In this document: one piece after another, positions 213-14,330 of the stretch
How the letters are laid out: every line of letters begins with the position of its first letter
Position numbering within the stretch: position 1 is the first letter of the stretch
From: Nitrosopumilus sp. K4
GTDB lineage: Archaea > Thermoproteota > Nitrososphaeria > Nitrososphaerales > Nitrosopumilaceae
NCBI RefSeq assembly: GCF_018128925.1
Contig: NZ_CP067007.1
Coordinates: forward strand, 1,330,330-1,394,329
Reading direction: 5' to 3'
Length of the DNA stretch: 64,000 nucleotides
Translations under genes and position numbers: made by a program
The notes under the pieces: generated by a model
The model's input: only the letters and a program-made list of their open reading frames with translations
Databases searched by the model: none
Told to the model about the DNA's origin: nothing

Positions 213-3200
213 CTAGTACCTCCTTGACAATTGCTCACGTTTTTCCTTAATTTTATCCCAATTTTGCAAAATGTCAATGGATTCGGAACTATTCCACCAT
301 TCATCAAAGGGAACTTGAGAGGTAGTTTTTCTAATTTCACTATATTGGCCAAGATTTACTGTAGTAGGTGATGGAACATTATATGTTACATTTTCTGCAA
401 TCATAAATCTATCATGCATCTGTCTATGCAAGTCTTTAGTCATTATCACCTGCATCTCACAAGAAATTCCTTTTTCCTTTAATTCATTTTGGAATTTAGA
501 GAATTCGTTATACAGTCTATCATTAATTCCATTCTGATAAACACTTGTTAGAATTTTAACATGTTTTACATTATCCATATCAAGTCCGTGCATTAAAAAT
601 TCCAATCCTTCATAATTGAAGTATCTGTCAACCCAATGCAGATGTCCTCTACAACTTGAGATTGTCTGTCTAAATCGTAATCTGTTTTCTACAGGATTGG
701 CAGGAGTGATTGGAGGAATATGATTTTCTTGAATTCGTTCATAGTATGCGTCCACTGCTTTTTGTACTATTGCAGAATGATATTCTTCATCTTCCCAAAT
801 TCTTGATACTAGTCCCTTATATTTTTCCGCAGTTTGTCTACTTCCAATAATTTTGTCAAATTCCTCTTTGAATGCTCTGGCTAGATCATTTTTATCATTG
901 AATTTTGATTTAGCAATCTCTTTGAGTGAGGAATTTTTCATCAGTTCTGACATCCACTGATCAATAGTCATTACTTCAGCATCGCTAAGATCAAATCCTT
1001 TTCCAAACTGATCATTCATTGCGCGAATAATATCAGATAAGGATGTTAGAATCTCAGGTTTTTTACCAGATGGGATTTTTCCTGAAGAAACAAGATTTCT
1101 CTTTCCAGAGTCAGGAGAAATATTTCCTTCATGAATCTTTTCGAGCCTAAATCTCTGAAGCGAAATGTCTCCTTGTACTGCTCCAAGTTGCAATGTATCC
1201 CCTGATAATAGTTTTTTAGCCACAAGAAATTTGATTAATGCATACAATTTCTCAAGATTGACATCCTTGTATTTTACAAGTCTAGTTAAAAATGCATATT
1301 CGCTATGATATTTGTGCAAGTTTGATCTAAATTCATCTTGAATCTTTTCATCACTTTTGTTGTATCTGTCAAGTAGTGGTTCAATCCGTCTAAAAATTTC
1401 AGGGTGATCAGTTGAATGTGTTTCAGGATCAAACCAAATGTCTGCAAAATCATCAAGATCTTTTTGTGTGATAATTTTAAACTCCATAATATGAGAAAAC
1501 AATTCAATAATGAAATTTGGTTTTACTTTGTCAATTAATGATGTTCCTTCATAAAATACCTTAAAGGAATCTTGAATTGATTGTGCTTCATTAACAAAAT
1601 CAATTACTCTAGTTTCTTCCTTTAATGGATGATATCTGTTAAGACGAGACAATGTCTGAACAGCCTTTATTCCTTTGAGTTGCTTGTCTACATACATTGT
1701 ATGCAATAATGGCTGATCATATCCTGTTTGATATTTTTCTGCAACAATTAGAATATTATATTCAGGAGTATCAAATAATTCTCTTAGCTGTTCATCTGTA
1801 CTTGTGTGATTTAGCGAGTATTCAGTATGAAAATTTCCTTCTTCATCTTTGATAGAGCCAGAAAATGCAACAAGTGTCTTTACGCCTTTGATCTCTTTTT
1901 CTTTGATTAGTCTGTCTAAGATTCGTTTGTACTTGAATGCTGCAAGTCTGGCAGGAGTTACAATCATTGCTTTTGCTAGCCCGCCTATTGCAGGCTTGAC
2001 ATTTTGTTGAAAGTCCGCTAGAATTACTTCACTTTTTGCTTCTTCTGCCATCTCGTGAGAATTTACCCATCGAAGAATTGCAGCTGTTGCTCTTTTTCCT
2101 TCAACTATTTTTTCTCCAGTTGAAGTTTTTACCAGATTAAAATATTGATTGTATGTCGTATAGTTTTGCAATACATCTAAGATGAATCCCTCCTCAATTG
2201 CCTGCCTCATTGTGTATTCATGATGAGGATCATATGGGATTCCATCCCCCCTCCTGCTGGGCTCAGAAATCTCTTTTCCAAAGAGCCTAAGGGTCTTTTC
2301 TTTAGGGGTTGCAGTAAAGGCATAGTAGCTGAGATTCTCAATTGAGCGAAATTCCTCTATTTTTTCAACCAACCCTTTTTTGGATTCTTCTTGCTGCGCC
2401 TCTTTTTTGATTTCCTCAGGCATTTTTGCTGAAAGCACATCAACAACTGATTTTGCTTCATCTCCTGCTTGAGAAGAGTGTGCCTCATCAATAATTACTG
2501 CAAATTTTTTCCCCTTTATTTCTCCAATTTTTTTTAGTGTTTGGGGGAATTTTTGCTGAGTCGTGATTAGAATTTTGTTTGCAGTTTGTAAATTATCAAT
2601 TAATGCAGGTGTGTTTTCCATTTTTTCAACTACACCTTCAGTTTTTTTGAATTGTTCTATTGTCTTTGCAAGTTGATTTACAACCCCTACTCTGTCAGAC
2701 AAAACAATTACAGAATTAAAAATTGCCTCATCATCATTATCATGTAATGAAAATAATTTGTATGCAAGCCATGCAATTGTATTACTTTTTCCACTTCCAG
2801 TGGAGTGTTGAATTAGATAGTTATCTCCTGCACCATTATCTTTGGTTTCATTTTCCAGTAGATTTACCGCATCTAATTGATGATATCTTGGGAAGATGAG
2901 TTTTTCTTTTGGTTTTTCCGGATACTTTTGTGGAATAATTTGTATTGCAATGTATCTTCCAATAATGTCAAGCCATTGATCTTTTTGTAGTATTTTTTCC
3001 CAGAGATAACTAGTTCTCATTCCAGAGGGGTTTGGAGGGTTTCCCTTTCCGCCATTGTATCCTTTGTTAAATGGCAGGAATTCAGTTTTTGTTCCCTCTA
3101 GTTTTGTAGTCATGTGAATTTCAAATGGATCTACTGCAAAGTGAACCATTGCTCTTTTTTTAAACGCAAATAGAATCTCTTGTGGATCCCTGTCTTGTTG

Positions 3201-3698
3201 ATATTGAGTTATCGCGTCAAGATAGCCATTTTTGTAGTCTTTGAGTTCTGCTGTTGCTACGGGTAATCCGTTTAGGAAAAATCCCAAATCAATTGACTTT
3301 TCATTTTTTGTAGAATAGTGAAATTGTCTTTTTACTGAGAGAATGTTTTTCTCATAGAGGCGTTGCAGTTCTGGATTTCTACCCGAAACAGGCTTGAAAT
3401 AGGCACAATCTAGTCTGATGTCAGATAGTACAAATCCGTTTCTTAGAACATGTATCATGGATTCAGAATCTAATGTCTTTTCTACACTACGAAGAATCTC
3501 ATCTCGAGTATTTTCTCCATGAATCTCTTTGAGTTTATTGAAATTATCTTGTTGTGAGTTTTCAATGAATCGAATTAAAATCTCATAGTCTATGCCAAGT
3601 TTTCTGTCATAGTTTTCTGTAGATTTTTCATAACCAGATTCTAGAAGAAAGTTTTCAATTGTATCTTCAAATTGTTTTTCTGTGACTTGAGTTGTCAC
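213..3698 (-). CDS. hsdR: Type I restriction enzyme R subunit (HsdR)
   Basis: This 1161-residue protein is the motor and nuclease subunit of a type I restriction enzyme. The N-terminal nuclease domain shows a PD-(D/E)xK core at D137 and E151-L-K153. The SF2 helicase part follows, with Walker A GSGKS near 301-305, DEAH at 404-407, FTATP at 461-465 and a motif VI SRLNRYHP further on. It translocates DNA with ATP and cuts unmethylated DNA at a distance from the recognition site. Its start overlaps the hsdS stop by 4 nt (ATGA), so it is translationally coupled. The length and all key motifs look intact, so the enzyme is probably active. Confidence 0.95.
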   Translation of the reverse strand: MTTQVTEKQFEDTIENFLLESGYEKSTENYDRKLGIDYEILIRFIENSQQDNFNKLKEIHGENTRDEILRSVEKTLDSESMIHVLRNGFVLSDIRLDCAYFKPVSGRNPELQRLYEKNILSVKRQFHYSTKNEKSIDLGFFLNGLPVATAELKDYKNGYLDAITQYQQDRDPQEILFAFKKRAMVHFAVDPFEIHMTTKLEGTKTEFLPFNKGYNGGKGNPPNPSGMRTSYLWEKILQKDQWLDIIGRYIAIQIIPQKYPEKPKEKLIFPRYHQLDAVNLLENETKDNGAGDNYLIQHSTGSGKSNTIAWLAYKLFSLHDNDDEAIFNSVIVLSDRVGVVNQLAKTIEQFKKTEGVVEKMENTPALIDNLQTANKILITTQQKFPQTLKKIGEIKGKKFAVIIDEAHSSQAGDEAKSVVDVLSAKMPEEIKKEAQQEESKKGLVEKIEEFRSIENLSYYAFTATPKEKTLRLFGKEISEPSRRGDGIPYDPHHEYTMRQAIEEGFILDVLQNYTTYNQYFNLVKTSTGEKIVEGKRATAAILRWVNSHEMAEEAKSEVILADFQQNVKPAIGGLAKAMIVTPARLAAFKYKRILDRLIKEKEIKGVKTLVAFSGSIKDEEGNFHTEYSLNHTSTDEQLRELFDTPEYNILIVAEKYQTGYDQPLLHTMYVDKQLKGIKAVQTLSRLNRYHPLKEETRVIDFVNEAQSIQDSFKVFYEGTSLIDKVKPNFIIELFSHIMEFKIITQKDLDDFADIWFDPETHSTDHPEIFRRIEPLLDRYNKSDEKIQDEFRSNLHKYHSEYAFLTRLVKYKDVNLEKLYALIKFLVAKKLLSGDTLQLGAVQGDISLQRFRLEKIHEGNISPDSGKRNLVSSGKIPSGKKPEILTSLSDIIRAMNDQFGKGFDLSDAEVMTIDQWMSELMKNSSLKEIAKSKFNDKNDLARAFKEEFDKIIGSRQTAEKYKGLVSRIWEDEEYHSAIVQKAVDAYYERIQENHIPPITPANPVENRLRFRQTISSCRGHLHWVDRYFNYEGLEFLMHGLDMDNVKHVKILTSVYQNGINDRLYNEFSKFQNELKEKGISCEMQVIMTKDLHRQMHDRFMIAENVTYNVPSPTTVNLGQYSEIRKTTSQVPFDEWWNSSESIDILQNWDKIKEKREQLSRRY

Positions 3699-4990
3699 GC
3701 AATCGCCTCCCGTACATCAATTTTACCAGTAACAGCAGATGTGATCAGTGCTTGTCTGAATTCTTGTATCTTTTCTATTTGAGATTCTGTTTTTGAGATT
3801 AATGAATCAATTTTAGAGGTTTCTTTTTCTAAAAATCTTGCAATTTCATTTTGTTCTTCTTTGGGAGGTACTGGTAAAACCATATTACCAATAAAACTCC
3901 ATTCAGCCCTTGGCATTTTTGCTCCATAAGTTGATGCATCAATATTCTTTATTGTTCCATCAGATAACAACAATAAAGAAAGAAATTTTGATTCGTAATC
4001 TATTCCTTTGAATACTAAAAACTCACTAGAACATCTTCCTGCAAATTCTGCATTCCATACTTTAGCAAGATATGGTCTCAGTTTTCCTAATAAAACATCC
4101 TTTTCTTCAAACAATTTAGAATCAGATTCATTCATTTCATTATTTACATCAATCAATTTTCCATTTTTTGATGTAATATTTTCTAGTCCAATATAAGGTC
4201 GTGAATTAGAATCTCTTGATTTGTCTGAACGTAAGAAAATTGAAAATTTGAGTCTTTTTTCATTCCATCCTTTAGGTATCTCACCAATCCAATCCACACA
4301 CGAATCCTTCATAGGAACAGTAGGATCTAGTCCTTTTGTTACAGTCTGATTGATGGTACTCTGCCTCTTTTCTTTGAGCAATTCAACCAGTCTTTGGTTT
4401 TTTTGGATGTCCGAATCAATTTTTGTAGTTTTTTTGTCTAGAAAATTTGCAATTTGTTTTTGTTCTTCTAGTGTTTTTGGCAATACAAATTGAAAGTTAT
4501 TGAATGATTCTTGATATAGATGATGAATTGTTGAGCCTGTTTTTATCCAATTAATGAATTCTAAAAATATGCTTGACTGTAACATCCAAAAAATAAATTC
4601 TGACAAATATGTATCTTTTAATGGTCTGATTACCATTACTCCAGTGTTTAATGTAGTGGGTGCAGGAATTTGTTCTACTTTTGCAACTTTTCCAATTGTT
4701 CCATCTTTTGTAATCAAAATATCTTTTTCTCTTAATTGTATGTGGGGATCTTGATCATATCTCCATTGATCAACATGATGACATGTATTCCAATTAATTT
4801 TTCCATTTTCAAAATCTGTTCCAGTTACTAACAAGGGACCTTTATCAGTAAATTCATCGGAACGTAATCCCTGCCAACCAATTCTTCCTTTAACATATGA
4901 TGTAAACTTTATTTTTGTTATATCCCAATGTTCAGGTATTTCTCCAATCCATTCCACACCAGAATCTTTCATCTTTGGATAAATTTTCAT
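3695..4990 (-). CDS. hsdS: Type I restriction specificity subunit (HsdS), complete
   Basis: This 431-residue HsdS has the usual two-halves plan. The first recognition domain opens with MKDSGVEWIGEIP at residue 7. The central conserved helix (EEQKQIANFLDKKTTKID, about 175-192) follows. A second recognition domain opens with MKDSCVDWIGEIP at residue 227, and a second conserved helix (EEQNEIARFLEKE) ends the protein. The two domains differ in sequence, which implies a bipartite asymmetric DNA target. The gene overlaps hsdM by 4 nt upstream and hsdR by 4 nt downstream. The repeated opening motif could support domain exchange with the second hsdS. Confidence 0.94.
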   Translation of the reverse strand: MKIYPKMKDSGVEWIGEIPEHWDITKIKFTSYVKGRIGWQGLRSDEFTDKGPLLVTGTDFENGKINWNTCHHVDQWRYDQDPHIQLREKDILITKDGTIGKVAKVEQIPAPTTLNTGVMVIRPLKDTYLSEFIFWMLQSSIFLEFINWIKTGSTIHHLYQESFNNFQFVLPKTLEEQKQIANFLDKKTTKIDSDIQKNQRLVELLKEKRQSTINQTVTKGLDPTVPMKDSCVDWIGEIPKGWNEKRLKFSIFLRSDKSRDSNSRPYIGLENITSKNGKLIDVNNEMNESDSKLFEEKDVLLGKLRPYLAKVWNAEFAGRCSSEFLVFKGIDYESKFLSLLLLSDGTIKNIDASTYGAKMPRAEWSFIGNMVLPVPPKEEQNEIARFLEKETSKIDSLISKTESQIEKIQEFRQALITSAVTGKIDVREAIA

Positions 4991-7101
4991 TCATTCATCA
5001 ACTCCTCCAGGCCTTCAGAGATTTCTTTTTGTAATTTTCTTATGTCAGCATTGATTTCTTCTAGTGGTCTTAGGGGGGTGTACTTGTAGAATTGACGTGT
5101 AAATGGAATCTCATATCCAATTTTGTCTCTAGTTGATTCATCTATCCATGCATCTGGAACATATTTTTTGACCTCTTCTTCAAAATATTCATCAATGTCT
5201 TTTCCCAATGGAATATTTTCATAATCTCTTAGCTCAGAATCGGCTACAGGGTGAGGATCATCTTGTTTTTCATAGTATGGCTCTGCCGTCTCATCTCGTT
5301 CAGATAATGCATTTTCTATTGTCTTTAATAGTGGAGATGGGAGTTTCACTTCTTTTTGTGTGAAAACTTCTTTGACTTTATCTGAGAATTCAGTATAATT
5401 TTTGAAAGTTTTAGTTGGAATGCTAGCAAGACATTCTAGAACCTGTCCTTTTGATGGAATTTTCTTGAGTGGTTTTTCAGGTAATTTTTCAAAGTTTTTC
5501 TCTTGTTTTAGATTCTCAATTCTTTCCTCATTTACAACAAAATTTCTCTTTAATGGACGCTCTACTGTAATTCGGGTATATCCAAAGTATTCGTTATCAT
5601 AAATCTTTGAGAATTCTCCTTCCTCAAAGTCCTTGAATATCTTTGTAATTTTTGAAATCTGACCATTCTTTTCTTCTTCTATCTCATTTCTTTTCATACC
5701 AAGACTGCTTTTCATTTTAGAGTAAAATTCAGGACCAACTGCATTAATCAATTGGACCTTTCCTTTACGATGTTCAGGCTTGTTATTAGTTACAATCCAT
5801 AGATATGTGAAAATTCCAGTGTTGTAAAATAATTGGTCTGGCATTGCAATTACTGCTTCTAGCATATCATTTTCAATAATCCATTTTCTGATGTTGCTTT
5901 CACCAGATCCTGCTTCTCCAGTAAATAACGGAGACCCGTTTAGAACAATTGCAATTCTTGCACCACCATTTTCTTTTGGTTTCATTTTTGAAATCATGTG
6001 CATCAAAAATAGCAAAGAACCATCGCTTTTTCTTGGAAGTCCTGCACCATACTTTCCATCAAATCCCTTTTCTTGTTCAGCAAAAATCTTTGTAGAATAT
6101 TTTCCCCAATCTACACCAAATGGAGGATTAGATAACATATAGTGAAATTTATCGTCTGGGAATCCATCTTGATCAGTCAGGCTGTTTCCAATCTTAATGT
6201 TCTCTAAGTTCAATTCCTTAATCATCATATCTGATTTACAAATTGCATATGCAAATGGCAAAAGTTCCTGCCCAAACAATTCTACTTTTAATTTTGAATT
6301 AACATCATCATGAAGATGGTTTTTTGCCATTGCAAGCATGCCGCCTGTTCCTGCAGCTGGATCATAAATCGAGACAGAACCGCCCCCTTCTTTGAGTTTT
6401 TCTTCATCTTCTGAAAAAATTAGATTTACCATTAATTGAATAACTTCTCTTGGTGTAAAGTGCTCACCTGCCTCTTCATTTGTTGCCTCACTTGTTTTTC
6501 TAATTAGTTCCTCATAGATTCTGCCCATTACTTCATGAGTGACAGATTCTTTGTCAAGAGGGGCTTTTGCAAAATGCTGAACAATATTGTATAATTGACC
6601 TTGCTTATGTAATTCATCAATGGTATTGTTAAATTTGAAATTCTCAAAAACTTCCTTCACCTCTTTTGAAAATCCCCGCATGTACTCTTTCATATTTTTA
6701 TGAATATCATCTGGTTCTTCGAGGAGTTGCTCTAGATCAAATTTGCTTTTGTTATGGAATTCATAACCAGTAACATCATTTAGGATTTTTTCTAACAGTT
6801 TTTCATCTGTTCCTTTGTGTTTTTCTAATTCTTCAAGAACTTCTTTTTTTGTTGGCTCTAAGAGTCTCCCGAGTCTTCTCAGGACAATAAATGGTAAAAT
6901 AATTCGCCCATAGTCAATTCTCTTAAAATCTCCTCTGAGGATCTCTTTTGCGTTCCATGCCAATGATACAATTTCATTCCATTCCATTTTCTCACTCGTA
7001 CTACTATCATTTAGGGTATCAAAATAACTATTACTTTCATAATTCTGATCGGAAATTTGCCTATTTTTCTTGTTGCTTTTGATTTTATTTTGTTTTTTCA
7101 T
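4987..7101 (-). CDS. hsdM: Type I restriction-modification methyltransferase (HsdM)
   Basis: This 704-residue N6-adenine methyltransferase has the HsdM N-terminal helical domain (about 40-180, with the WNAKEILRGDF stretch), the SAM-binding motif DPAAGTGG (247-254) and the catalytic NPPF (325-328). It methylates the host copy of the target and is also part of the restriction complex. It is first in the M-S-R operon and has its own promoter in the 65-bp gap after the CARF gene. An operator-like palindrome in that gap ends 34 nt before this ATG. The charged N-terminal extension of about 35 residues is not part of the usual domain. Confidence 0.95.
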   Translation of the reverse strand: MKKQNKIKSNKKNRQISDQNYESNSYFDTLNDSSTSEKMEWNEIVSLAWNAKEILRGDFKRIDYGRIILPFIVLRRLGRLLEPTKKEVLEELEKHKGTDEKLLEKILNDVTGYEFHNKSKFDLEQLLEEPDDIHKNMKEYMRGFSKEVKEVFENFKFNNTIDELHKQGQLYNIVQHFAKAPLDKESVTHEVMGRIYEELIRKTSEATNEEAGEHFTPREVIQLMVNLIFSEDEEKLKEGGGSVSIYDPAAGTGGMLAMAKNHLHDDVNSKLKVELFGQELLPFAYAICKSDMMIKELNLENIKIGNSLTDQDGFPDDKFHYMLSNPPFGVDWGKYSTKIFAEQEKGFDGKYGAGLPRKSDGSLLFLMHMISKMKPKENGGARIAIVLNGSPLFTGEAGSGESNIRKWIIENDMLEAVIAMPDQLFYNTGIFTYLWIVTNNKPEHRKGKVQLINAVGPEFYSKMKSSLGMKRNEIEEEKNGQISKITKIFKDFEEGEFSKIYDNEYFGYTRITVERPLKRNFVVNEERIENLKQEKNFEKLPEKPLKKIPSKGQVLECLASIPTKTFKNYTEFSDKVKEVFTQKEVKLPSPLLKTIENALSERDETAEPYYEKQDDPHPVADSELRDYENIPLGKDIDEYFEEEVKKYVPDAWIDESTRDKIGYEIPFTRQFYKYTPLRPLEEINADIRKLQKEISEGLEELMNE

Positions 7102-7135: not shown

Positions 7136-7163
7136 ATTTGTATAATACAAATAAAATTTGTAT
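7136..7163. promoter_or_regulatory. Operator site 1, upstream of hsdM
   Basis: Read towards hsdM (minus strand), three 8-bp half-sites occur in the order ATACAAAT, 3 bp, ATTTGTAT, 1 bp, ATACAAAT. The perfect palindrome is 7145-7163 and the extra half-site is 7136-7143. Exactly 34 nt separate the last half-site from the hsdM ATG. The extra half-site runs into a TATA-like ACAAATTTA, so the palindrome sits just upstream of the expected BRE/TATA. The same arrangement recurs at sites 3 and 4. A regulator-binding role is inferred. Confidence 0.75.
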
Positions 7164-7166
7164 AGT

Positions 7167-7919
7167 CTACAATATGCTGCCTAGCAGATCAGAGAATTCT
7201 GCATAGTATTCTCCTGAGGGGGTAAGCTGAATAGTATTTTTTTTGTTATCCACTAATGATTTTCCCGTCATTTTGTTTTTTGAGGGTTTTTCCCATCCAC
7301 GAGTAACTGTAATGAGATCATTTGTTTGAAGTTTTGCCAAATGATATTCAATTCTTTGGTTTTTCTTTACTCGAGTATCTTTTCTTACCTCTTCTAATAA
7401 CATAGAATATGTGCATTTTCCTAATTTCTTAATTTTTTCTAAAACAATCTTTGTAATCTTTGATGTATTTCCTTTGTCATCTTTTTCAGGAATTACAGGC
7501 ATTGGGAGTTCTTTTACCAATTCTTCACCTCTATGCTTTGATGCTTCCATTACATAGTATACCCTAGTTCCCGCAAGATATGCAGCTACAGTTGCTGCTG
7601 AAACCATCAATTTTGTCCCACCTGTGATATTTATGGCAAAATCCTTCTTACTCAGGTTAGCGTTGGCCTTTTTTTCTTTATAGATAATATTTAGAAGTGA
7701 ATGGATAATTTTGTCCATATCAAATGCATCAACTTTTTCTAAAATTGTTGGTATTTTGTATTGTTCTTCAATTTTCTTTTTGAGTTTCTTTGCCTCTTTT
7801 TCAAAATCATAGTTTGATTCTTTTTTTGTATGAATAATGTATAATTTTTCAGGAAGTGATTTTTTCAATCCTTCTTCAACAACAACTGGTGTCAATCCAA
7901 GTGTAGCTAATTGAATCAT
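7167..7919 (-). CDS. CARF-domain winged-helix transcriptional regulator
   Basis: This 250-residue protein opens with a Rossmann-like strand (IQLATLGLTPVVVEEGL) and carries the CARF signature ITGGTKL at 98-104, the loop that binds cyclic oligonucleotides or related ligands in CARF proteins. Residues of about 155-205 look like a winged helix-turn-helix. This domain order is that of Csa3-like and HFX_2341-like regulators. It has no HEPN or nuclease domain, so it is a regulator rather than an effector. An operator palindrome abuts its start codon (7923-7941), which suggests autoregulation. It lies between hsdM and a divergent HEPN-type gene. The ligand is unknown, and no cyclase gene is visible in the window. 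Confidence 0.85.
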   Translation of the reverse strand: MIQLATLGLTPVVVEEGLKKSLPEKLYIIHTKKESNYDFEKEAKKLKKKIEEQYKIPTILEKVDAFDMDKIIHSLLNIIYKEKKANANLSKKDFAINITGGTKLMVSAATVAAYLAGTRVYYVMEASKHRGEELVKELPMPVIPEKDDKGNTSKITKIVLEKIKKLGKCTYSMLLEEVRKDTRVKKNQRIEYHLAKLQTNDLITVTRGWEKPSKNKMTGKSLVDNKKNTIQLTPSGEYYAEFSDLLGSIL

Positions 7920-7922
7920 TTC

Positions 7923-7941
7923 CTACAAATTTTATTTGTAT
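7923..7941. promoter_or_regulatory. Operator site 2, overlapping the CARF gene promoter
   Basis: The palindrome CTACAAAT-TTT-ATTTGTAT (one mismatch in the left arm) ends only 3 nt before the CARF gene ATG at 7919. A weaker half-site ATCCAATT lies 1 bp further right (7943-7950), on the side facing the divergent gene at 8052. Unlike the other sites, the palindrome here covers the region where the start of a short-leader transcript would lie. That position fits repression of the CARF gene by its own product. This is inferred from position and sequence only. Confidence 0.65.
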
Positions 7942-8051
7942 AATCCAATTATTTACATATTTTTGTTATATGTGTAAGAAAATATGAAAAATGGAAGTTA
8001 AGGAATATCTTAAATGTTCTCGGATAAAGACAATGATAGGAGGTTCATACT

Positions 8052-9218
8052 ATGGAAGATGATGAAAAGTGGGAAGAGGCTCAAGAAGCCGAAGAAGATC
8101 TCTTTGAAGAAGATCTAAAAAAAGAAGAGGAAGATAAACGTGCCTGGGAAGAATTTCAGCAAAAACAATTTGAAGATGCTGCAGAAGAATATTTTCATGA
8201 CAAAGAAATTGAAAATCTGACTGAATCATATGAAGAAGAGTCAGAGGAAAGTCTTGATTTAGATACGGAACAAGAATACAAAGCAGATACAATTGAGAAC
8301 CTCCTTACAGAATTAAAGGAGACAAATTATGATCATTTTTCAACAGAATTAGATGAATTATCAAAAACAATTAAAGAAAAATATCTTGAAGAACTTACAA
8401 AACCTCCAAAAATAATCGAAAAAGAAAATGAGATTGATCTTGATTATGAGGCATATAATTTTGCAAGAACATCAGCAATTCTTTCTTTGCAATTTTCATG
8501 GGTAAAAATAGAATCAAAATTCAAGTCATTACTTGAAAAACTAAAAGAAACAAATTTTTCAAAAGATAAGGAAATTAAAGAATTGGAATTAGTTCTTGAC
8601 AAATTTAAAAAAACATGTGTAATGGAAATTATTGATTCTAAGAAAACACTAAATCAAGATGACAGTCAATTTGATGAAACTGAGAAGTTTGATGACATTA
8701 TTACCAAATTAGATAAAATCTATGCATCATTCTTTGATGTGTTCTTAGTACCAATTACCAATTGGCAATATACCAGAGAAAAAGCGTTCAAATCAGCTCC
8801 AAAAACTATGAAATTTCGTGCATATAATATTGATCTACGACAGAAAAAAGAACAGGCATTAAAAAACAAAGACGAGAACTACTCTACAGATTATTCCACA
8901 TGCAATTATGATACTCAATTTCATTTAGGTGACGATGGACCTACAATCCGTGGTTTTTTGTTTCAAGGGTATTGGAGAGTTGAAACGATGTTAAAAGAAC
9001 TACGTAATCATACTGAGCATTGGAAAAAGGGAGAAAGCAAGGCATATCTTAGCAACAAATTAAAACGAATTTCAGAAGATCCAATCTCCAACATAGAATC
9101 TCCTGGAAATTTTCTTATTTTGATTAGTGTCTTGATGTTAGTTAGTTATCATTTCATAGACATAATGCAAACCTGGATTGACACAGATACTATTCTAAAG
9201 CAAAGATTATACAAATAA
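8052..9218 (+). CDS. HEPN-motif protein with acidic N-terminal region (candidate ribonuclease)
   Basis: This 388-residue protein is in no family I can name. Residues 1-80 are extremely acidic (runs of E and D). The rest is helical, and near the end is R318-N-H-T-E-H323, which matches the R-x4-H catalytic motif of HEPN ribonucleases, followed by a hydrophobic helix (about 343-358). A clear AGGAGGT ribosome site sits 7 nt before the ATG, so this gene has a leader, unlike its neighbours. It diverges from the CARF regulator, and its TAA lies inside operator site 3. HEPN assignment from one motif in a helical C-terminus is plausible but unproven. Confidence 0.6.
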   Translation: MEDDEKWEEAQEAEEDLFEEDLKKEEEDKRAWEEFQQKQFEDAAEEYFHDKEIENLTESYEEESEESLDLDTEQEYKADTIENLLTELKETNYDHFSTELDELSKTIKEKYLEELTKPPKIIEKENEIDLDYEAYNFARTSAILSLQFSWVKIESKFKSLLEKLKETNFSKDKEIKELELVLDKFKKTCVMEIIDSKKTLNQDDSQFDETEKFDDIITKLDKIYASFFDVFLVPITNWQYTREKAFKSAPKTMKFRAYNIDLRQKKEQALKNKDENYSTDYSTCNYDTQFHLGDDGPTIRGFLFQGYWRVETMLKELRNHTEHWKKGESKAYLSNKLKRISEDPISNIESPGNFLILISVLMLVSYHFIDIMQTWIDTDTILKQRLYK

Positions 9219-9236
9219 TATTTGTATAATACAAAT
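9209..9236. promoter_or_regulatory. Operator site 3, upstream of the 9272 operon
   Basis: The perfect palindrome ATACAAAT-AAT-ATTTGTAT (9209-9227) is followed after 1 bp by another ATACAAAT (9229-9236). The start codon at 9272 is 35 nt further on. This repeats, in the direction of transcription, the layout at hsdM. The last half-site runs into a TATA-like AAATTATA. The site overlaps the last codons and stop of the upstream gene. Confidence 0.75.
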
Positions 9237-9271: not shown

Positions 9272-9709
9272 ATGAAACAACAACTTTCATACCAAATGGG
9301 TGGCGGCCATAACGCTGAATCTTATGATTCCTTTGAGAAGTTCGTCTTCTCTGATATTGACGAGAATATCGTCTACCACAAATCTACCATAGATGAACTC
9401 TATGACAGAGTAATGGCATCACTTGGAAATTCCTACAAGGGAGCAAACAAGTATGTCTATGGAAATATCTTACAGGCAATCAAAGCGATTGTAAACTGCA
9501 AGAAAAACCATCTGAAATCTCCCGTAAGAGGGCAGGCTATTGCTTTCTTACATCAGGAGATGCAGTTCTCACCTTCTACAATACAAAGGATTCTTCTTTT
9601 GTTTGATGTAGAAATGGGAACATCTGAAATCCTAAAGCAGTCAGACAGGGTCTTTGCAGACAAGCCTGCTCCTGCTTGGATTAAGAGATTCTTTGGAGGT
9701 GTGAACTAG
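9272..9709 (+). CDS. Unknown protein with MKQQ...GGGH leader motif, first gene of small operon
   Basis: This 145-residue protein is not recognised. It begins MKQQLSYQMGGGHNAES; the first 13 residues and their DNA closely match the start of the short gene at 13435, and a related MK...SGGHN start occurs at 13329 on the other strand. The C-terminal half is helical and basic. A SPSTIQRILLLFDV stretch could be a DNA-binding helix-turn-helix, but this is weak. No ribosome site is seen, so the transcript is probably leaderless or short-leader. The next gene starts at the G of this gene's TAG. Operator site 3 lies just upstream. Confidence 0.7.
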   Translation: MKQQLSYQMGGGHNAESYDSFEKFVFSDIDENIVYHKSTIDELYDRVMASLGNSYKGANKYVYGNILQAIKAIVNCKKNHLKSPVRGQAIAFLHQEMQFSPSTIQRILLLFDVEMGTSEILKQSDRVFADKPAPAWIKRFFGGVN

Positions 9710-10255: not shown

Positions 10256-11098
10256 TTAGTAAATTCTATTTTTTTTCATAATTCTTTTGAGATGTTCATT
10301 AGAAAGTCCTATTTCATCAAAGAGATGTTCATTTTCTTCATTAGTATCATAGATCAAATAGCAATCAAAAAACATGTTTGATTTACTAATTAAAATCATA
10401 ATCAAGGTTATTTTGTACATCAAATCTCCATCATTAAATTCAACTTTTTTTCCTGCATGAATAACTTGATGTCTTAATTCAAATAATTTTTCAATTTCAT
10501 TCCAACTGTGTGTTAAAGTTCCTGAACCTGTGATTTGTTCAAGATCTTTTACTGTTTGAAAAAAATCCAAACTCACAAGATTTGAAAAAACATGTCCTAT
10601 ACTATCTAAATTTTGAAAATTAAAACTAGTTGCAACAACATCTGCTTCTAAATTCCAGTCTGGATTCTTGGTTGGTTTTAGTATTTTTGGATTTTTTTCA
10701 TCTAATGCTGTACTTCCTGCAATCTTTCTAATATCATTAATCTTTTTTTCTAGACTACTGTCTTCTGGAAATAATTTTGGTAAATTATAATTGAATGCAC
10801 CATACCAATATCTCATCAAATTCCGAAAATGTATCTCTACCATTGAAACCAGTTTGATTATTAGCAGTTCTTTTAGATATGATTTGATTTTTTCATCTTC
10901 AGTTTTGAGTATTTTTGTTAAAAGATCCTTGATAGAAGGATCAATTTCCAAAGATATTGAATTATCTAAATTCTCAATCTTAGAATTATGATAAAATTTT
11001 AGTCTTGATTTACTACAGCTTAAACAAACATTATATTTTGAATTTGAAAGTTCTCTCCCACAGTTTGAACATTTTTTAGGATTTTTCTCGTTCATCAC
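10256..11098 (-). CDS. Zinc-ribbon HEPN-domain protein (candidate ribonuclease)
   Basis: This 280-residue protein has an N-terminal zinc ribbon (C10-x2-C13 and C25-x2-C28), a helical middle and the motif R209-H-Q-V-I-H214 followed by AGKK. RHxxxH-AG is a classic HEPN signature and the motif is intact. It is the last gene of a five-gene leftward operon from 13329. The start is either the GTG at 11098 (4-nt overlap with the upstream stop) or the ATG at 11095 (TGATG). HEPN proteins are often RNA-cutting toxins or effectors; the substrate here is unknown. Confidence 0.75.
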   Translation of the reverse strand: MMNEKNPKKCSNCGRELSNSKYNVCLSCSKSRLKFYHNSKIENLDNSISLEIDPSIKDLLTKILKTEDEKIKSYLKELLIIKLVSMVEIHFRNLMRYWYGAFNYNLPKLFPEDSSLEKKINDIRKIAGSTALDEKNPKILKPTKNPDWNLEADVVATSFNFQNLDSIGHVFSNLVSLDFFQTVKDLEQITGSGTLTHSWNEIEKLFELRHQVIHAGKKVEFNDGDLMYKITLIMILISKSNMFFDCYLIYDTNEENEHLFDEIGLSNEHLKRIMKKNRIY

Positions 11099-11673
11099 TC
11101 ATCATGAATTTGCTTTTTGATTTGATAAAGTAACTGTTTGAGCCCGGTAGGGTCTAACACATCTGGAATCAATATCACAATTTGTCCGCTTAGTAGAACG
11201 TTAATGTCGCCTACTCGCCTGCTAGTTGATTGCCCTTGAGTAAATCCCATGCCTGCATACATAAACCCAGGCATCATTCCTCCTGCAATTGCGCCAGTTC
11301 TCTCAGAAAATGAATGTGCATTACTAACAACAACATCCACATACTTTAGAGGAACTTGAGTCAGCTTGGCCTCTTCTTCGTTAAGACAAAAAATTCTATA
11401 GTTTGTGACATACCAGCTAGTTGTTTTTTTAAAAATAATTCCAGTTTTGTGTTCATACATGGCAATTAGTTGTTCTCCCATCTCTTTCTTTATTCTAGGA
11501 CTTTCCAGGATGTTTGCAAGTTTTCTTGCGTAAAAATCAGTTTCTTTTATTTGAATTTCAAAATTTGGAAGATGGAGAGTGATTGCGTGTAGTGGCTCTC
11601 CATCTTCTGTCAGAGATACAACGGGCTCTTTTGTATCCCATTTTTTTGACAGTTCATCTTTTAGTTCTGTCAC
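11095..11673 (-). CDS. PH-like domain protein
   Basis: This 192-residue protein has a stretch, TTSWYVTNYRIFCLN, typical of bacterial/archaeal PH-like domains (b-strand pair with a conserved TNxR). A glycine- and methionine-rich loop (GAIAGGMMPGFMYAGMG) interrupts the fold and could insert into or touch a membrane. It lies in the five-gene operon between a DUF2130 protein and a HEPN protein, with 4-nt overlaps at both ends. PH-like domains bind lipids or proteins, so a scaffold or membrane-anchor role is inferred. Confidence 0.6.
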   Translation of the reverse strand: MTELKDELSKKWDTKEPVVSLTEDGEPLHAITLHLPNFEIQIKETDFYARKLANILESPRIKKEMGEQLIAMYEHKTGIIFKKTTSWYVTNYRIFCLNEEEAKLTQVPLKYVDVVVSNAHSFSERTGAIAGGMMPGFMYAGMGFTQGQSTSRRVGDINVLLSGQIVILIPDVLDPTGLKQLLYQIKKQIHDE

Positions 11674-12905
11674 TTTTCTAGAACCTCCGCTGTAATCTCG
11701 TCTAGATCAGTCTGAGTGATAGACTCTATTCCACTAGTGACATCATTGTATGTCTTTACTAGCTGATCATAGAGATCACGTCTTGTCTTCCACAAAGTAT
11801 TGTGGTCTTTCTCCTCTTTTGTCTGCAGCAAGTAGAGTTTCTCATTTATTCCTGCAATGTCTTCAATGGTCATTGAAAATTCTGAACTCATCACAAACTG
11901 GTAGAGTTTTGCTTGCTTTGATTTCTGGTCTTCTTTACCCATAGAGAGTTTTGAGACATCAATAATTCCTGTTCTAATCTGTTTTGCAACTTCAGTTACA
12001 ATGCTTGGATGAACTAAAAGAATCCCTTCTCTTGTACCAAACAATCCATTTGGAACGCTAGTCTTTGGAAGATTTGCAGAAACTATGATGACATAGTTTG
12101 TTCCATGAATCTTTTGGTATTTCTTGGCTTTCTCAATGTCTTTTTTGGTTACAGTGTTTGCTGCCTTGTTGTCATAGACTATTGGAGTATCAAGAGATTT
12201 GCCTCTGATGCGAATCTGCTGAATTACATCTCCGCTTGATTGGCCTCTCTTTTGCCTTCTAAACAGGTCATTTGGGAAGGCATCAGTCAGGCTCGAATAC
12301 AAGTCTAGCTCGCCAGCCTCTCCTTTTAGTTCAGATTGGCTTTGCTGGAGTTGTTTTTTGAGAGATTCAATCTCTCCTGCAAATCTGCTGATTTGAACAT
12401 CTCTTTCCTGAATTGTCTGATACAGTTCACGCTCTTTTTGAGCATATGTGGCATTTGCTTGATCTATTGCGGCTTTTTTGAATTTTTCTTGTTCCTTTTT
12501 CAATTGCGAGATTTCTTTTCCTTTCTCTGAGATCTCTTTTTTGTGAACTGCCTTGAGTTGCTTTTCAAGCTCCACAAACTGTTTTTCATTCTGTTTTAGA
12601 ATTGAATCATAGTTTTTCTGCATTAATTCAGTCTGGGTCTTGTATGATTTTTCAATGTCTTGTTGCATTTGCTCTAATTGTATCTGATGAGACCTGTGAT
12701 TCTCTTCTATTGTTTTCTCATAGTCTTTTTTTAGTCTAGAGATTTGTTCCTCAAATTCTTCTTTTTGATTAGAGTTTTTCTCATCAAAGTTTTGTTGAAG
12801 TTTTTCTTCTAGTTGACTAATAGCTAATTCATATTCCGTATTTGCAAGTGTCTTTGAGCATAATGGACACTTGAATTCAGATATTTCTGATAGATTGTTA
12901 CTCAT
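11670..12905 (-). CDS. DUF2130 protein: zinc knuckle, coiled coil, nuclease-like domain
   Basis: This 411-residue protein starts with a CPLC zinc knuckle, continues with about 180 residues of coiled coil, and ends with a DUF2130 domain (from GEAGELDLYSSLTDAFP). That domain resembles the PD-(D/E)xK fold; GDVIQQIR and VYDNK could supply the acidic and lysine residues. The start is the ATG at 12905, which overlaps the upstream TGA (TGATG) and follows a GGAGGA site; a longer reading from 12923 is less likely. Its biochemical role is unknown. Its place next to HEPN and PH-like genes suggests a defence function. Confidence 0.75.
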   Translation of the reverse strand: MSNNLSEISEFKCPLCSKTLANTEYELAISQLEEKLQQNFDEKNSNQKEEFEEQISRLKKDYEKTIEENHRSHQIQLEQMQQDIEKSYKTQTELMQKNYDSILKQNEKQFVELEKQLKAVHKKEISEKGKEISQLKKEQEKFKKAAIDQANATYAQKERELYQTIQERDVQISRFAGEIESLKKQLQQSQSELKGEAGELDLYSSLTDAFPNDLFRRQKRGQSSGDVIQQIRIRGKSLDTPIVYDNKAANTVTKKDIEKAKKYQKIHGTNYVIIVSANLPKTSVPNGLFGTREGILLVHPSIVTEVAKQIRTGIIDVSKLSMGKEDQKSKQAKLYQFVMSSEFSMTIEDIAGINEKLYLLQTKEEKDHNTLWKTRRDLYDQLVKTYNDVTSGIESITQTDLDEITAEVLEK

Positions 12906-13177
12906 CAGTAAATCCTCCTGCAACTAGTACATACTGGATTTTCTACAGGCAGTAGAAATGATTCTTTACACATTACACATTCTGTTGTATGCATTGTGTC
13001 TTCTTCATCCAGATATCTTGGACGTTTTACATCAACAATTTTCTCAAATCTAGGCACTTGATTTGAAAATACTTTGTCAAGTAGTGTAGGATTTGCCAAA
13101 TACTTGTATTTTTTAGGACACAAGTCAAATCCACAACAAGCAGAGTGTTTTTGTATTGAAACTAGTTGTTGTTTCAA
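12905..13177 (-). CDS. Small cysteine-rich zinc protein
   Basis: This 90-residue protein starts at TTG 13177, after a good AAGGAGGT site. The TTG overlaps the stop of the upstream 51-residue gene by 4 nt. The N-terminal part has C14, C15 and C20. The C-terminal part has CVMC and CTSC pairs (a zinc ribbon). It also begins MKQQL, like two other proteins of this island. It is the second gene of the leftward five-gene operon. Its function is unknown; a nucleic-acid or protein-binding adaptor is possible. Confidence 0.65.
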   Translation of the reverse strand: MKQQLVSIQKHSACCGFDLCPKKYKYLANPTLLDKVFSNQVPRFEKIVDVKRPRYLDEEDTMHTTECVMCKESFLLPVENPVCTSCRRIY

Positions 13178-13329
13178 TTTGAAACCTCCTTTACTTGTGC
13201 TAAGACAATTCCAGGTGCTGACTCCATGAAATTAATAAAACTCATGACGTCTACAATTCCTATCATGTCTTGTGCAGCGATATTGTGGCCCCCGCTGTCA
13301 GGGATTAGGTTTGAAACTTTGTGCTTCAT
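13174..13329 (-). CDS. 51-residue leader protein of the leftward operon
   Basis: This short gene encodes MKHKVSNLIPDSGGHNIAA and continues to a TGA at 13174, overlapping the next start by 4 nt (TTGA). The AAGGAGGT at its 3' end serves the next gene. Its first residues fit the MK..(L/I/V)S...GGH pattern of the proteins at 9272 and 13435. The 20 bp before its ATG nearly match those before 9272 (CCTGATAACTA then GGTATG). The central part (IGIVDVMSFINFM) is hydrophobic. Operator site 4 ends 34 nt upstream. Confidence 0.6.
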   Translation of the reverse strand: MKHKVSNLIPDSGGHNIAAQDMIGIVDVMSFINFMESAPGIVLAQVKEVSN

Positions 13330-13363
13330 ACCTTAGTTATCAGGCTCAGAATGATAGTCATTT

Positions 13364-13400
13364 AATTGTATTATACAAATAATATTTGTATAATCCAAAA
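13364..13400. promoter_or_regulatory. Operator site 4, shared by two divergent operons
   Basis: A perfect central palindrome ATACAAAT-AAT-ATTTGTAT (13373-13391) is flanked 1 bp away on both sides by weaker half-sites: AATTGTAT (13364-13371) and ATCCAAAA (13393-13400). The left flank is 34 nt from the ATG at 13329 and the right flank is 34 nt from the ATG at 13435. One site therefore serves both divergent operons with the same geometry as hsdM. The flanking half-sites overlap the likely TATA boxes. Confidence 0.75.
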
Positions 13401-13434
13401 AAAATGCTATGCGTCTATTCCAGACATCTAAAGT

Positions 13435-13587
13435 ATGAAACAACAGATTTCAAAACAAATGGGTGACGGCCATATCGTCCAGCAATTTGCTGAAAACACT
13501 AGACCTCTAAATCTAGTTCAAGCTTTTCTTTATGCTTGCTTTGGAGGTTTCTCTGTAAAAGAAATTTTGGAGGGAAAAAGAATTTGA
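13435..13587 (+). CDS. 50-residue leader protein of the Cas4-like operon
   Basis: It encodes MKQQISKQMGDGHIVQQ and continues to ILEGKRI with a TGA at 13585. About 39 of the first 45 bp, counted from the GT before the ATG, match the start of the 9272 gene. The middle (LVQAFLYACFGGFSV) is hydrophobic and could be one membrane helix. Its stop overlaps the next gene's TTG (TTGA), and the GGAGGGA inside its last codons is the ribosome site for that gene. It could be a true small protein or a translated leader. Confidence 0.55.
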   Translation: MKQQISKQMGDGHIVQQFAENTRPLNLVQAFLYACFGGFSVKEILEGKRI

Positions 13588-14330
13588 GTACAGTTCAAAA
13601 ACAAAAAGAACAAAGTCTTACTACAGAAATTGATACTCCTGAAGGAATTGTTAATTTCTTAGAAAAAAGAAATGGATTGTATTCCAAAGACTATACTTCA
13701 AGATATTCAGTAACAGAATTAGTTGGATGTCAAAGAAAGTCACTTTACAAGCAGTTAGAGGTACCTCAAGAAGAGCTTCTGGAGGACACAACTCTAGAGT
13801 CAATGTGGGCTACAGTCCGTGGGGACTTTTTGCACAACATGACATACGCATACAAGTGGCGTGAAATGGACATTGAGCATTATGTTCCATTAGAGAATGG
13901 CAAAGTAGCAACATTAGCAGGACGTCTTGACATGTATGATTGGAAGACAAAGACAATCATTGATCTAAAGACTACAAAATTTGTAAGATGGCAAATAAAG
14001 CAAGGATTCTTGCCAAAGCCTGAACACATTTTGCAACTACAATGTTATGATACAATGTTCTCAGATTACATGCCAGTAGAGAATCTAAACATTGTCTATG
14101 CTGACATGTCAGACATTGTAACATACAAAGTGCAAAAGAGAGACATGACTGACTGGATAAAGACTAGAGTTCAGGAAATTGAAACAGCAAAGGACAGCAA
14201 TACAATTCCAAAAGGAGAGGTTTCTGGCTTGTGCAAATATTGTAGATACCAGACAAGATGCTTTGATGCAGGAGATGGATTGACAGACAAGCCATTGTCC
14301 ACTCCAAAGTCAAAGGAGGCATCTGAATGA
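13584..14330 (+). CDS. Cas4-like Fe-S nuclease (RecB family)
   Basis: This 248-residue protein starts at TTG 13584, coupled to the leader gene. It shows the Cas4/RecB nuclease layout: C49 (GCQRK), H84, D116 (GRLDMYD), D127-L-K129, Q151-x3-Y155, then C217-x2-C220-x5-C226. The four Cys fit a 4Fe-4S cluster and the acidic residues fit a metal-dependent exonuclease. No cas1, cas2 or repeat array is near, so it is a solo Cas4-like protein. A role in DNA-end processing or in defence is inferred from operon context. Confidence 0.8.
   Translation: MSTVQKQKEQSLTTEIDTPEGIVNFLEKRNGLYSKDYTSRYSVTELVGCQRKSLYKQLEVPQEELLEDTTLESMWATVRGDFLHNMTYAYKWREMDIEHYVPLENGKVATLAGRLDMYDWKTKTIIDLKTTKFVRWQIKQGFLPKPEHILQLQCYDTMFSDYMPVENLNIVYADMSDIVTYKVQKRDMTDWIKTRVQEIETAKDSNTIPKGEVSGLCKYCRYQTRCFDAGDGLTDKPLSTPKSKEASE

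What the first reader, a model, noticed from the sequence alone, without database searches (positions are those of the whole stretch)
13330..13434. Symmetric bidirectional control element between two divergent operons
Around the palindrome at 13373-13391, weaker half-sites stand 1 bp away on each side, and each is exactly 34 nt from its own ATG (13329 and 13435). One regulator dimer or tetramer could thus switch a Zn/DUF2130/PH/HEPN operon and a Cas4-like operon together. The mirror symmetry is hard to explain by chance.
Basis: seen in the sequence. Interest (0 to 1): 0.65.

Follow-up and report, generated by a model that had tools for sequence, protein, structure and literature searches.

The report
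CARF-regulator operator, archaeal defence island
The palindrome is a real DNA switch, one of four near-identical ones used by a nucleotide-sensing (CARF) regulator next door to control a small antiviral-defence island in an ammonia-oxidising archaeon, and its mirror symmetry arises because two standard copies of the same promoter layout sit back to back on one shared switch.

Summary
A perfect palindrome (13370-13394, centre 13382) lies exactly midway between ATG 13329(-) and ATG 13435(+), and 8-bp half-sites flank it 1 bp away, each 34 nt from its ATG. It is not a lone element. The same operator, ATACAAATnnnATTTGTAT, occurs at 7145, 7923, 9209 and 13373, and nowhere else in the 1.65-Mb genome at <=1 mismatch. 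It flanks a CARF-winged-helix gene (7167-7919). In 250 family genomes, clustered operators occur only where a close orthologue of that gene occurs. Nine of ten homologue loci carry a related palindrome at the regulator's start (centre 12-13 nt from its ATG). Further copies lie with centres 52-54 nt before the start codons of hsdM, Cas4-like and tagged-protein genes (26 promoter sides). The symmetry is two copies of a standard architecture sharing one operator. Best reading: a Csa3/HFX_2341-like CARF-wHTH dimer autorepresses and controls (probably activates) type I R-M, Cas4-like and DUF2130 genes. No Cas10 was found in these genomes, so the ligand is unknown. The conserved N-terminal peptide tag on many targets is unexplained.

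The parts
13370..13394 (.). Core operator S4, perfect 11+3+11 palindrome ATTATACAAAT-AAT-ATTTGTATAAT, centre 13382 (half-sites A 13373-13380, B 13384-13391)
   Evidence: sequence; copies
13364..13371 (-). Flanking half-site C' (ATACAATT on the minus strand), promoter side of the 13329(-) operon
13393..13400 (+). Flanking half-site C (ATCCAAAA), promoter side of the 13435(+) operon
13177..13329 (-). 51-aa first gene of the minus operon, tagged N-terminus MKHKVSNLIPDSGGHN
   Evidence: sequence
10256..13177 (-). Rest of minus operon: Cys-rich ORF 12905-13177, DUF2130 11670-12923, ORF 11095-11673, ORF 10256-11098
13435..13587 (+). 50-aa first gene of the plus operon, tagged N-terminus MKQQISKQMGDGH; its stop overlaps the TTG start of the Cas4-like gene
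   Evidence: sequence
13584..14330 (+). Cas4-like PD-(D/E)XK protein
7167..7919 (-). CARF-winged-helix regulator (proposed operator-binding protein)
   Evidence: CARF; model with wHTH; best PDB hits are Csa3
7923..7941 (.). Operator S2, 1 mismatch, ends 4 nt before the regulator's ATG (centre to ATG 13 nt): proposed autoregulation site
7145..7163 (.). Operator S1, centre 53 nt from hsdM ATG (7101, minus)
9209..9227 (.). Operator S3, centre 54 nt from ATG 9272 (plus)
213..7101 (-). Type I restriction-modification operon hsdM (4987-7101), hsdS (3695-4990), hsdR (213-3698)
   Evidence: hsdM, hsdS; hsdR ORF; hsdR homologues in the other loci
8052..9218 (+). 388-aa protein, conserved beside the regulator in G046 and G178
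9272..9709 (+). 145-aa tagged protein MKQQLSYQMGGGHN..., homologues in four other CARF loci

Best explanation
The element is the shared operator of two divergent promoters in a local regulon run by the CARF-winged-helix protein encoded at 7167-7919 (relative of Csa3a and HFX_2341). A regulator dimer binds the palindrome A-B. A third half-site, C, lies 20 bp from A in the same orientation, between the palindrome and the core promoter, and is probably contacted by a second dimer or subunit; the divergent site carries C on both sides. At target genes the operator centre sits 52-54 nt before the start codon, just upstream of the A/T-rich core promoter. That fixed geometry favours direct contact with the basal machinery, so activation is the favoured sign (about 0.6). 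At the regulator's own gene the operator centre sits 12-13 nt before the ATG and would block initiation (autorepression). An infection-derived nucleotide bound by the CARF domain would switch the hsdMSR, Cas4-like and DUF2130 operons together. Shown: the operator set, the spacing, co-occurrence with the regulator and co-variation of the half-sites. Inferred: protein binding, the sign of regulation and the ligand.
For: Four operators within 6.2 kb and nowhere else in the genome at <=1 mismatch. In 250 family genomes, clustered operators occur only in G000, G046 and G178, the three with a >=72% identical regulator, and single ones sit at the start of more distant homologues in G092 and G023. The palindrome lies with its centre 12-13 nt before the regulator's ATG in nine of ten homologue loci, including diverged forms TATACGA...TCGTATA (G138) and ACTACAAAA...TTTTGTAGT (G071). 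Of 54 outward directions, 19 have ATG/GTG at offset 53 and 8 at 54, against a mean of 1.4 at other offsets. The diverged half-sites recur at other promoters of the same loci, again at 53/54. Flanking C matches the local half-site on promoter sides and not on other sides (Mann-Whitney p=2.6e-6; ATACGA at 3/3 G138 promoters, CTACA or CTTCA at all five G023/G071 promoters). Out-of-sample test: a tag-DNA search found a new gene in G092 (C77:42275), and its operator centre lies exactly 53 nt upstream. The regulator model is CARF plus wHTH (pLDDT 87) and its top PDB hits are Csa3. Csa3a's palindrome likewise lies just upstream of BRE/TATA (PMC8699464).
Against: No binding or expression data. The sign is open: HFX_2341 acts mainly as a repressor (PMC11434293), and the C half-site abuts or overlaps the likely BRE, which would also suit repression. 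No type III CRISPR Cas10 was found in any of the ten genomes, so the usual CARF ligand source is absent. One homologue locus (G056) has no matching operator, and the palindrome at the G084 regulator start is weak. C is poorly matched in the two most distant loci, G163 and G084. Fixed spacing could partly reflect copying of whole promoter cassettes within a locus.
Confidence: 0.85

Rival explanations
1. Same operator and regulator, but the CARF-wHTH protein is a repressor that keeps the defence operons silent until a ligand releases it.
For: HFX_2341 overexpression represses cas genes (PMC11434293). Half-site C lies next to or over the probable BRE. The regulator's own site lies over its start. 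R-M islands in bacteria are controlled by repressors such as RptR (PMC12255303).
Against: The 52-54 nt spacing at targets is tighter than a blocking repressor needs, and the core palindrome lies upstream of, not over, the A/T-rich core promoter, like the Csa3a site (PMC8699464).
Confidence: 0.37
2. The palindrome is only two back-to-back core promoters (BRE/TATA), with no dedicated regulator.
For: Part of each flank lies where BRE/TATA is expected and is A/T-rich.
Against: No other copy in the genome at <=1 mismatch, tied to one regulator gene across genomes, and the sequence co-varies locus by locus.
Confidence: 0.04
3. The operator belongs to another DNA-binding protein, and the CARF gene is just a target in the same island.
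For: No binding assay exists; other co-conserved proteins (Cas4-like, 145-aa tagged protein) are present in many of the loci.
Against: The regulator is the shared protein at these loci with a recognised DNA-binding domain, it carries the site at a fixed position at its own start in nine genomes, and its relative Csa3a uses a palindrome in the same place.
Confidence: 0.08
4. The symmetry is coincidence or a recent repeat (MITE-like) insertion between two genes.
For: Four near-identical copies lie close together.
Against: The copies share mainly the operator and promoter; downstream sequence of untagged targets such as hsdM differs, the spacing is preserved between genera, and the copies diverge together within each genome.
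Confidence: 0.02

Closest known systems
Csa3a and its CAPPa palindrome (Saccharolobus/Sulfolobus CRISPR regulator; PMC8699464, PMC8844856)
   Same: CARF plus winged helix; a dimer-size palindrome immediately upstream of BRE/TATA; sites restricted to genes of one immune locus.
   Different: CAPPa is TCCCN8GGGA and controls CRISPR acquisition genes and arrays. Here the site is ATACAAAT-N3-ATTTGTAT with an extra half-site, and the targets are a type I R-M system and a Cas4-like/DUF2130 island. The cas_HTH (Csa3) model scores 23 bits against a 60-bit cut-off.
HFX_2341 / DUF6293 (haloarchaeal CARF-wHTH regulator; PMC11434293)
   Same: CARF family: PF19810 matches above its cut-off; predicted wHTH regulator, also found without CRISPR.
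   Different: HFX_2341 is a widely conserved, vertically inherited, largely repressing global regulator, with no operator described in the part of the paper read. This one is island-borne, absent from the four other same-genus genomes searched, and has a defined local regulon.
RptR (repressor of a type I R-M defence island; PMC12255303)
   Same: Dedicated regulator of a type I R-M island with several repeated binding sites in the promoter.
   Different: Bacterial, small regulator; 6-bp palindrome TAGCTA in direct repeats; a repressor. Not CARF as far as its abstract says.
WYL-type defence-island regulators BrxR/CapW (PMC9122601, PMC9122589, PMC9122588; seen as search results, not read)
   Same: Sensor-domain regulators tied to defence islands.
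   Different: WYL rather than CARF sensor domains; bacterial promoters.

Membership tests
CARF-wHTH transcription factors (broad) | N-terminal CARF domain | tested here: met
   PF19810 41.8 bits (cut-off 30), PF09651 and PF23400 over cut-off; PADLOC CARF3 2e-29; Foldseek Csa3, Can2, Csm6
[quoted passage not shown]
   Predicted model has three helices and a two-strand wing after the CARF domain, mean pLDDT 87; the best hits, 6wxq and 2wte (Csa3), align over nearly the full length but with high rmsd, so domain placement is uncertain
CARF-wHTH transcription factors (broad) | Binds a palindromic operator and regulates transcription | not testable with these tools
   Inferred from co-occurrence, position and co-variation
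Csa3 proper (TIGR01884) | Reaches the curated Csa3 model cut-off | tested here: not met
   23.0 bits against 60.2
Csa3 proper (TIGR01884) | Type III CRISPR (Cas10) in the genome as source of cyclic oligoadenylate | tested here: not met
   PF22335 finds no Cas10 in any of 10 genomes; 5 of 14 control genomes ring
HFX_2341 / DUF6293 family | PF19810 HFX_2341_N over gathering score | tested here: met
   41.8 against 30 bits
HFX_2341 / DUF6293 family | Core, vertically inherited chromosomal gene | tested here: not met
   Relatives of this regulator at E<=1e-5 in only 10 of 250 family genomes, none of the four other same-genus genomes
Type I restriction-modification (target operon) | hsdM, hsdS and hsdR present in one operon | tested here: met
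   hsdM and hsdS by Pfam/PADLOC; 1161-aa hsdR ORF homologous to the HsdR genes of the other loci, one of which carries HSDR_N and SWI2/SNF2 domains
Cas4 | Cas4 nuclease family over cut-off in a CRISPR locus | tested here: inconclusive
   PF01930 28 bits, over 22.7; NCBIfam cas4 43.8, under 65; no CRISPR locus recognised beside it. Called Cas4-like only

The most novel reading that the evidence does not exclude
Operator, core promoter, start codon and the first ~15 codons form one transferable cassette. The conserved N-terminal peptide (roughly M-K-x-x-x-S-x-[QL]-[MI]-[GP]-x-G-H-N) marks unrelated proteins of a CARF-controlled, CRISPR-free immune regulon. The peptide, or the mRNA 5' end that encodes it, may have a shared function such as recruitment, activation or translational control. 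A diagnostic tag that defines an immune regulon would be new.
Probability: 0.3. Interest if true: 0.75.

Novelty: new variant of a known kind. Interest (0 to 1): 0.6.

Why it matters
It gives a CARF-winged-helix regulator a defined operator, a conserved promoter geometry and a regulon outside CRISPR, in ammonia-oxidising archaea where defence regulation appears little studied. It makes two questions directly testable: how an archaeal R-M system is switched by a nucleotide-sensing type of regulator without Cas10, and how a CARF-wHTH protein reads DNA (a published Csa3a study found nonspecific binding to its palindrome, PMC8699464). Natural variants with matched regulator and operator changes (ATACAA, ATACGA, CTACAA) provide a ready specificity series.

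Tried and rejected
Bacterial sigma-70 and terminator scan over the region: at chance level and not relevant to an archaeon. tRNA search for an integration site: none in the window. PDB sequence search with the regulator: no hit; only the fold search worked. Scans of viral contigs with the regulator alignment and with the extended operator: nothing, so viral carriage is unsupported. Class-wide regulator survey: most extra hits are a separate chromosomal paralogue type with other upstream palindromes. SMODS nucleotide cyclase as ligand source: only weak hits in ~450-aa proteins, which I take to be a housekeeping nucleotidyltransferase (probably the CCA-adding enzyme; inference), so no dedicated cyclase is shown. 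Cas1 is present in three of the ten genomes but may be casposon- or CRISPR-derived; not pursued. I first read the flanks as plain BRE elements and dropped that as the full story when they were found to co-vary with the operator. Position of TATA-like hexamers in ordinary promoters of these loci was too diffuse to decide activator against repressor.

Full report
CHECK OF THE OBSERVATION. Reading the sequence, the palindrome is ATTATACAAAT-AAT-ATTTGTATAAT, 13370-13394, with perfect 11-bp arms centred on 13382. ATG 13329 (minus) and ATG 13435 (plus) are equidistant from that base.

IT IS NOT ALONE. Searching the core ATACAAATNNNATTTGTAT gives four places in the window at <=1 mismatch: 7145, 7923 (1 mismatch), 9209 and 13373. 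In the whole 1.65-Mb genome there is no further place with <=1 mismatch, and the reversed-pattern control finds none. The four lie within 6.2 kb, around a gene at 7167-7919 (minus). They precede hsdM (7101), that gene itself (7919), the 9272 gene, and the two genes of the finding.

THE REGULATOR. The 250-aa product matches CARF families: HFX_2341_N above cut-off, Cas_APE2256, Card1 CARF and PADLOC CARF3. A model from a ten-member alignment (mean pLDDT 87) shows a Rossmann-type domain followed by helices and a wing typical of a winged helix. The best solved-structure matches are Csa3, with and without cA4, although TM-scores are modest and rmsd is high, so the relative placement of the domains is uncertain. 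The NCBIfam Csa3 model scores well below its cut-off, so this is Csa3-like, not Csa3.

OPERATOR AND REGULATOR TRAVEL TOGETHER. In 250 genomes of the family, clusters of operators (<=1 mismatch, several within a few kb) occur in only three: G000 (this one), G046 and G178 (Ca. Nitrosotalea devanaterra). Those are exactly the three with a regulator at least 72% identical. Single operators sit at the start of diverged regulators in G092 and G023. Isolated one-mismatch matches in about 50 other genomes are of the sort expected by chance in A/T-rich DNA. The four other genomes of the same genus have neither regulator nor operator, so the island is not a genus-wide trait. Inspection of the ten homologue loci shows a palindrome whose centre is 12-13 nt before the regulator ATG in nine of them (weak in G084). 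In two it has changed: TATACGA...TCGTATA in G138 and ACTACAAAA...TTTTGTAGT in G071. The changed form recurs at other promoters of the same locus. G056 has no such site.

A FIXED PROMOTER GEOMETRY. Taking operators found by sequence and looking outward in both directions (54 directions), a start codon lies at offset 53 in 19 and at 54 in 8, against a mean of 1.4 at other offsets. With the later G092 site, 26 promoter sides at 52-54 with an open frame of at least 25 codons are tabulated. Targets include hsdM in G000, G046, G178, G023 and G138, Cas4-like genes in G178, G023, G138 and G071 directly and downstream of a tagged gene in others, and the operon that contains DUF2130 in G000 and in G023. 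The site in G163 at centre 10846 (L053) is a second exactly symmetric 53/53 case. The finding's mirror symmetry is therefore the superposition of two ordinary copies of this geometry on one operator.

THE FLANKING HALF-SITES. On promoter sides, an extra half-site C lies at +11 to +18 from the centre, 20 bp from half-site A and in the same orientation. On other sides it is mostly absent (Mann-Whitney p = 2.6e-6). C follows the local half-site: ATACGA in all three G138 promoters, and CTACA or CTTCA in all five G023 and G071 promoters. The more distant G163 and G084 loci show it poorly. Non-independence within a locus is a caveat. Downstream of C there is an A/T-only stretch at -36 to -32, a plausible TATA region; transcription starts are unmapped.

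OUT-OF-SAMPLE TEST. Many target genes begin with a common peptide, MKQQ(I/L)SxQMGxGHN. Searching its DNA in 250 genomes returned nine places in five genomes, all with the regulator. One (G092 C77:42275) was new to me; its operator centre lies 53 nt upstream. The gene there is a homologue of the 50-aa ORF at 13435 and is followed by a Cas4-like gene, as in the window. That site has no evident divergent partner, so the bidirectional arrangement itself is not conserved there.

MECHANISM. Shown: operator set, spacing, co-occurrence and co-variation. Inferred: a dimer of the CARF-wHTH protein binds A-B, with possible additional binding at C. At its own gene the site covers the start region, which predicts autorepression. 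At targets the site lies upstream of the core promoter at a nearly invariant distance, which is typical of activators and like the Csa3a CAPPa palindrome just upstream of BRE/TATA (PMC8699464). The contrary precedent is HFX_2341, mainly a repressor (PMC11434293). I put activation at about 0.6. The CARF domain suggests a nucleotide ligand, but no Cas10 is found in any of ten genomes and no convincing dedicated cyclase, so the signal is unknown.

SURROUNDINGS. The regulated genes form a defence-type island: complete hsdM-hsdS-hsdR, Cas4-like nuclease, DUF2130 and small tagged proteins. In other genomes the effector changes while regulator, operator and (in most) the Cas4-like gene stay; in G092 a 2072-aa DEAD/MZB helicase takes the place of the R-M genes.

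KNOWN OR NEW. CARF-wHTH regulators and defence-island regulators are known kinds (PMC4012209, PMC12255303). In six full-text searches of the open library I saw no description of a CARF-wHTH regulon with its operator over a type I R-M island in Nitrosopumilales; subscription papers are not covered. I file it as a new variant of a known kind.

Noticed in passing
13435-13479, 13285-13329, 9272-9316; also L047, L049, L050, L051, L053, L054, L094: Conserved N-terminal peptide tag on unrelated proteins. All 13 tagged ORFs in 11 loci and all 9 tag-DNA hits in 250 genomes have the operator 53/54 nt upstream. In G023 and G138 the tag is fused directly to the Cas4-like protein. Function unexplained.
   Followed up: partly
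L053 10837-10855 (G163): A second exactly symmetric operator with start codons 53 nt away on both sides.
   Followed up: partly
L049 11760-17978 (G092): 2072-aa DEAD/helicase-C/MZB protein beside the regulator and a Cas4-like gene, possibly a YprA/Druantia-like defence module under the same control.
   Followed up: no
L076-L086 regulator upstream regions: Chromosomal HFX_2341-type paralogues of other Nitrosopumilaceae carry a different palindrome near their starts, e.g. AGTATGCATACTGTACATACT; possibly their own operator.
   Followed up: no
7984-8001: On the plus side of operator S2 an ATG at offset 52 opens only a 5-codon ORF (MKNGS*), and the 388-aa gene starts at 8052; possible leader peptide or a leadered transcript.
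   Followed up: no
3-209: N-terminal part of a second HsdS-like ORF running off the window edge next to hsdR, possibly an alternative specificity gene.
   Followed up: no
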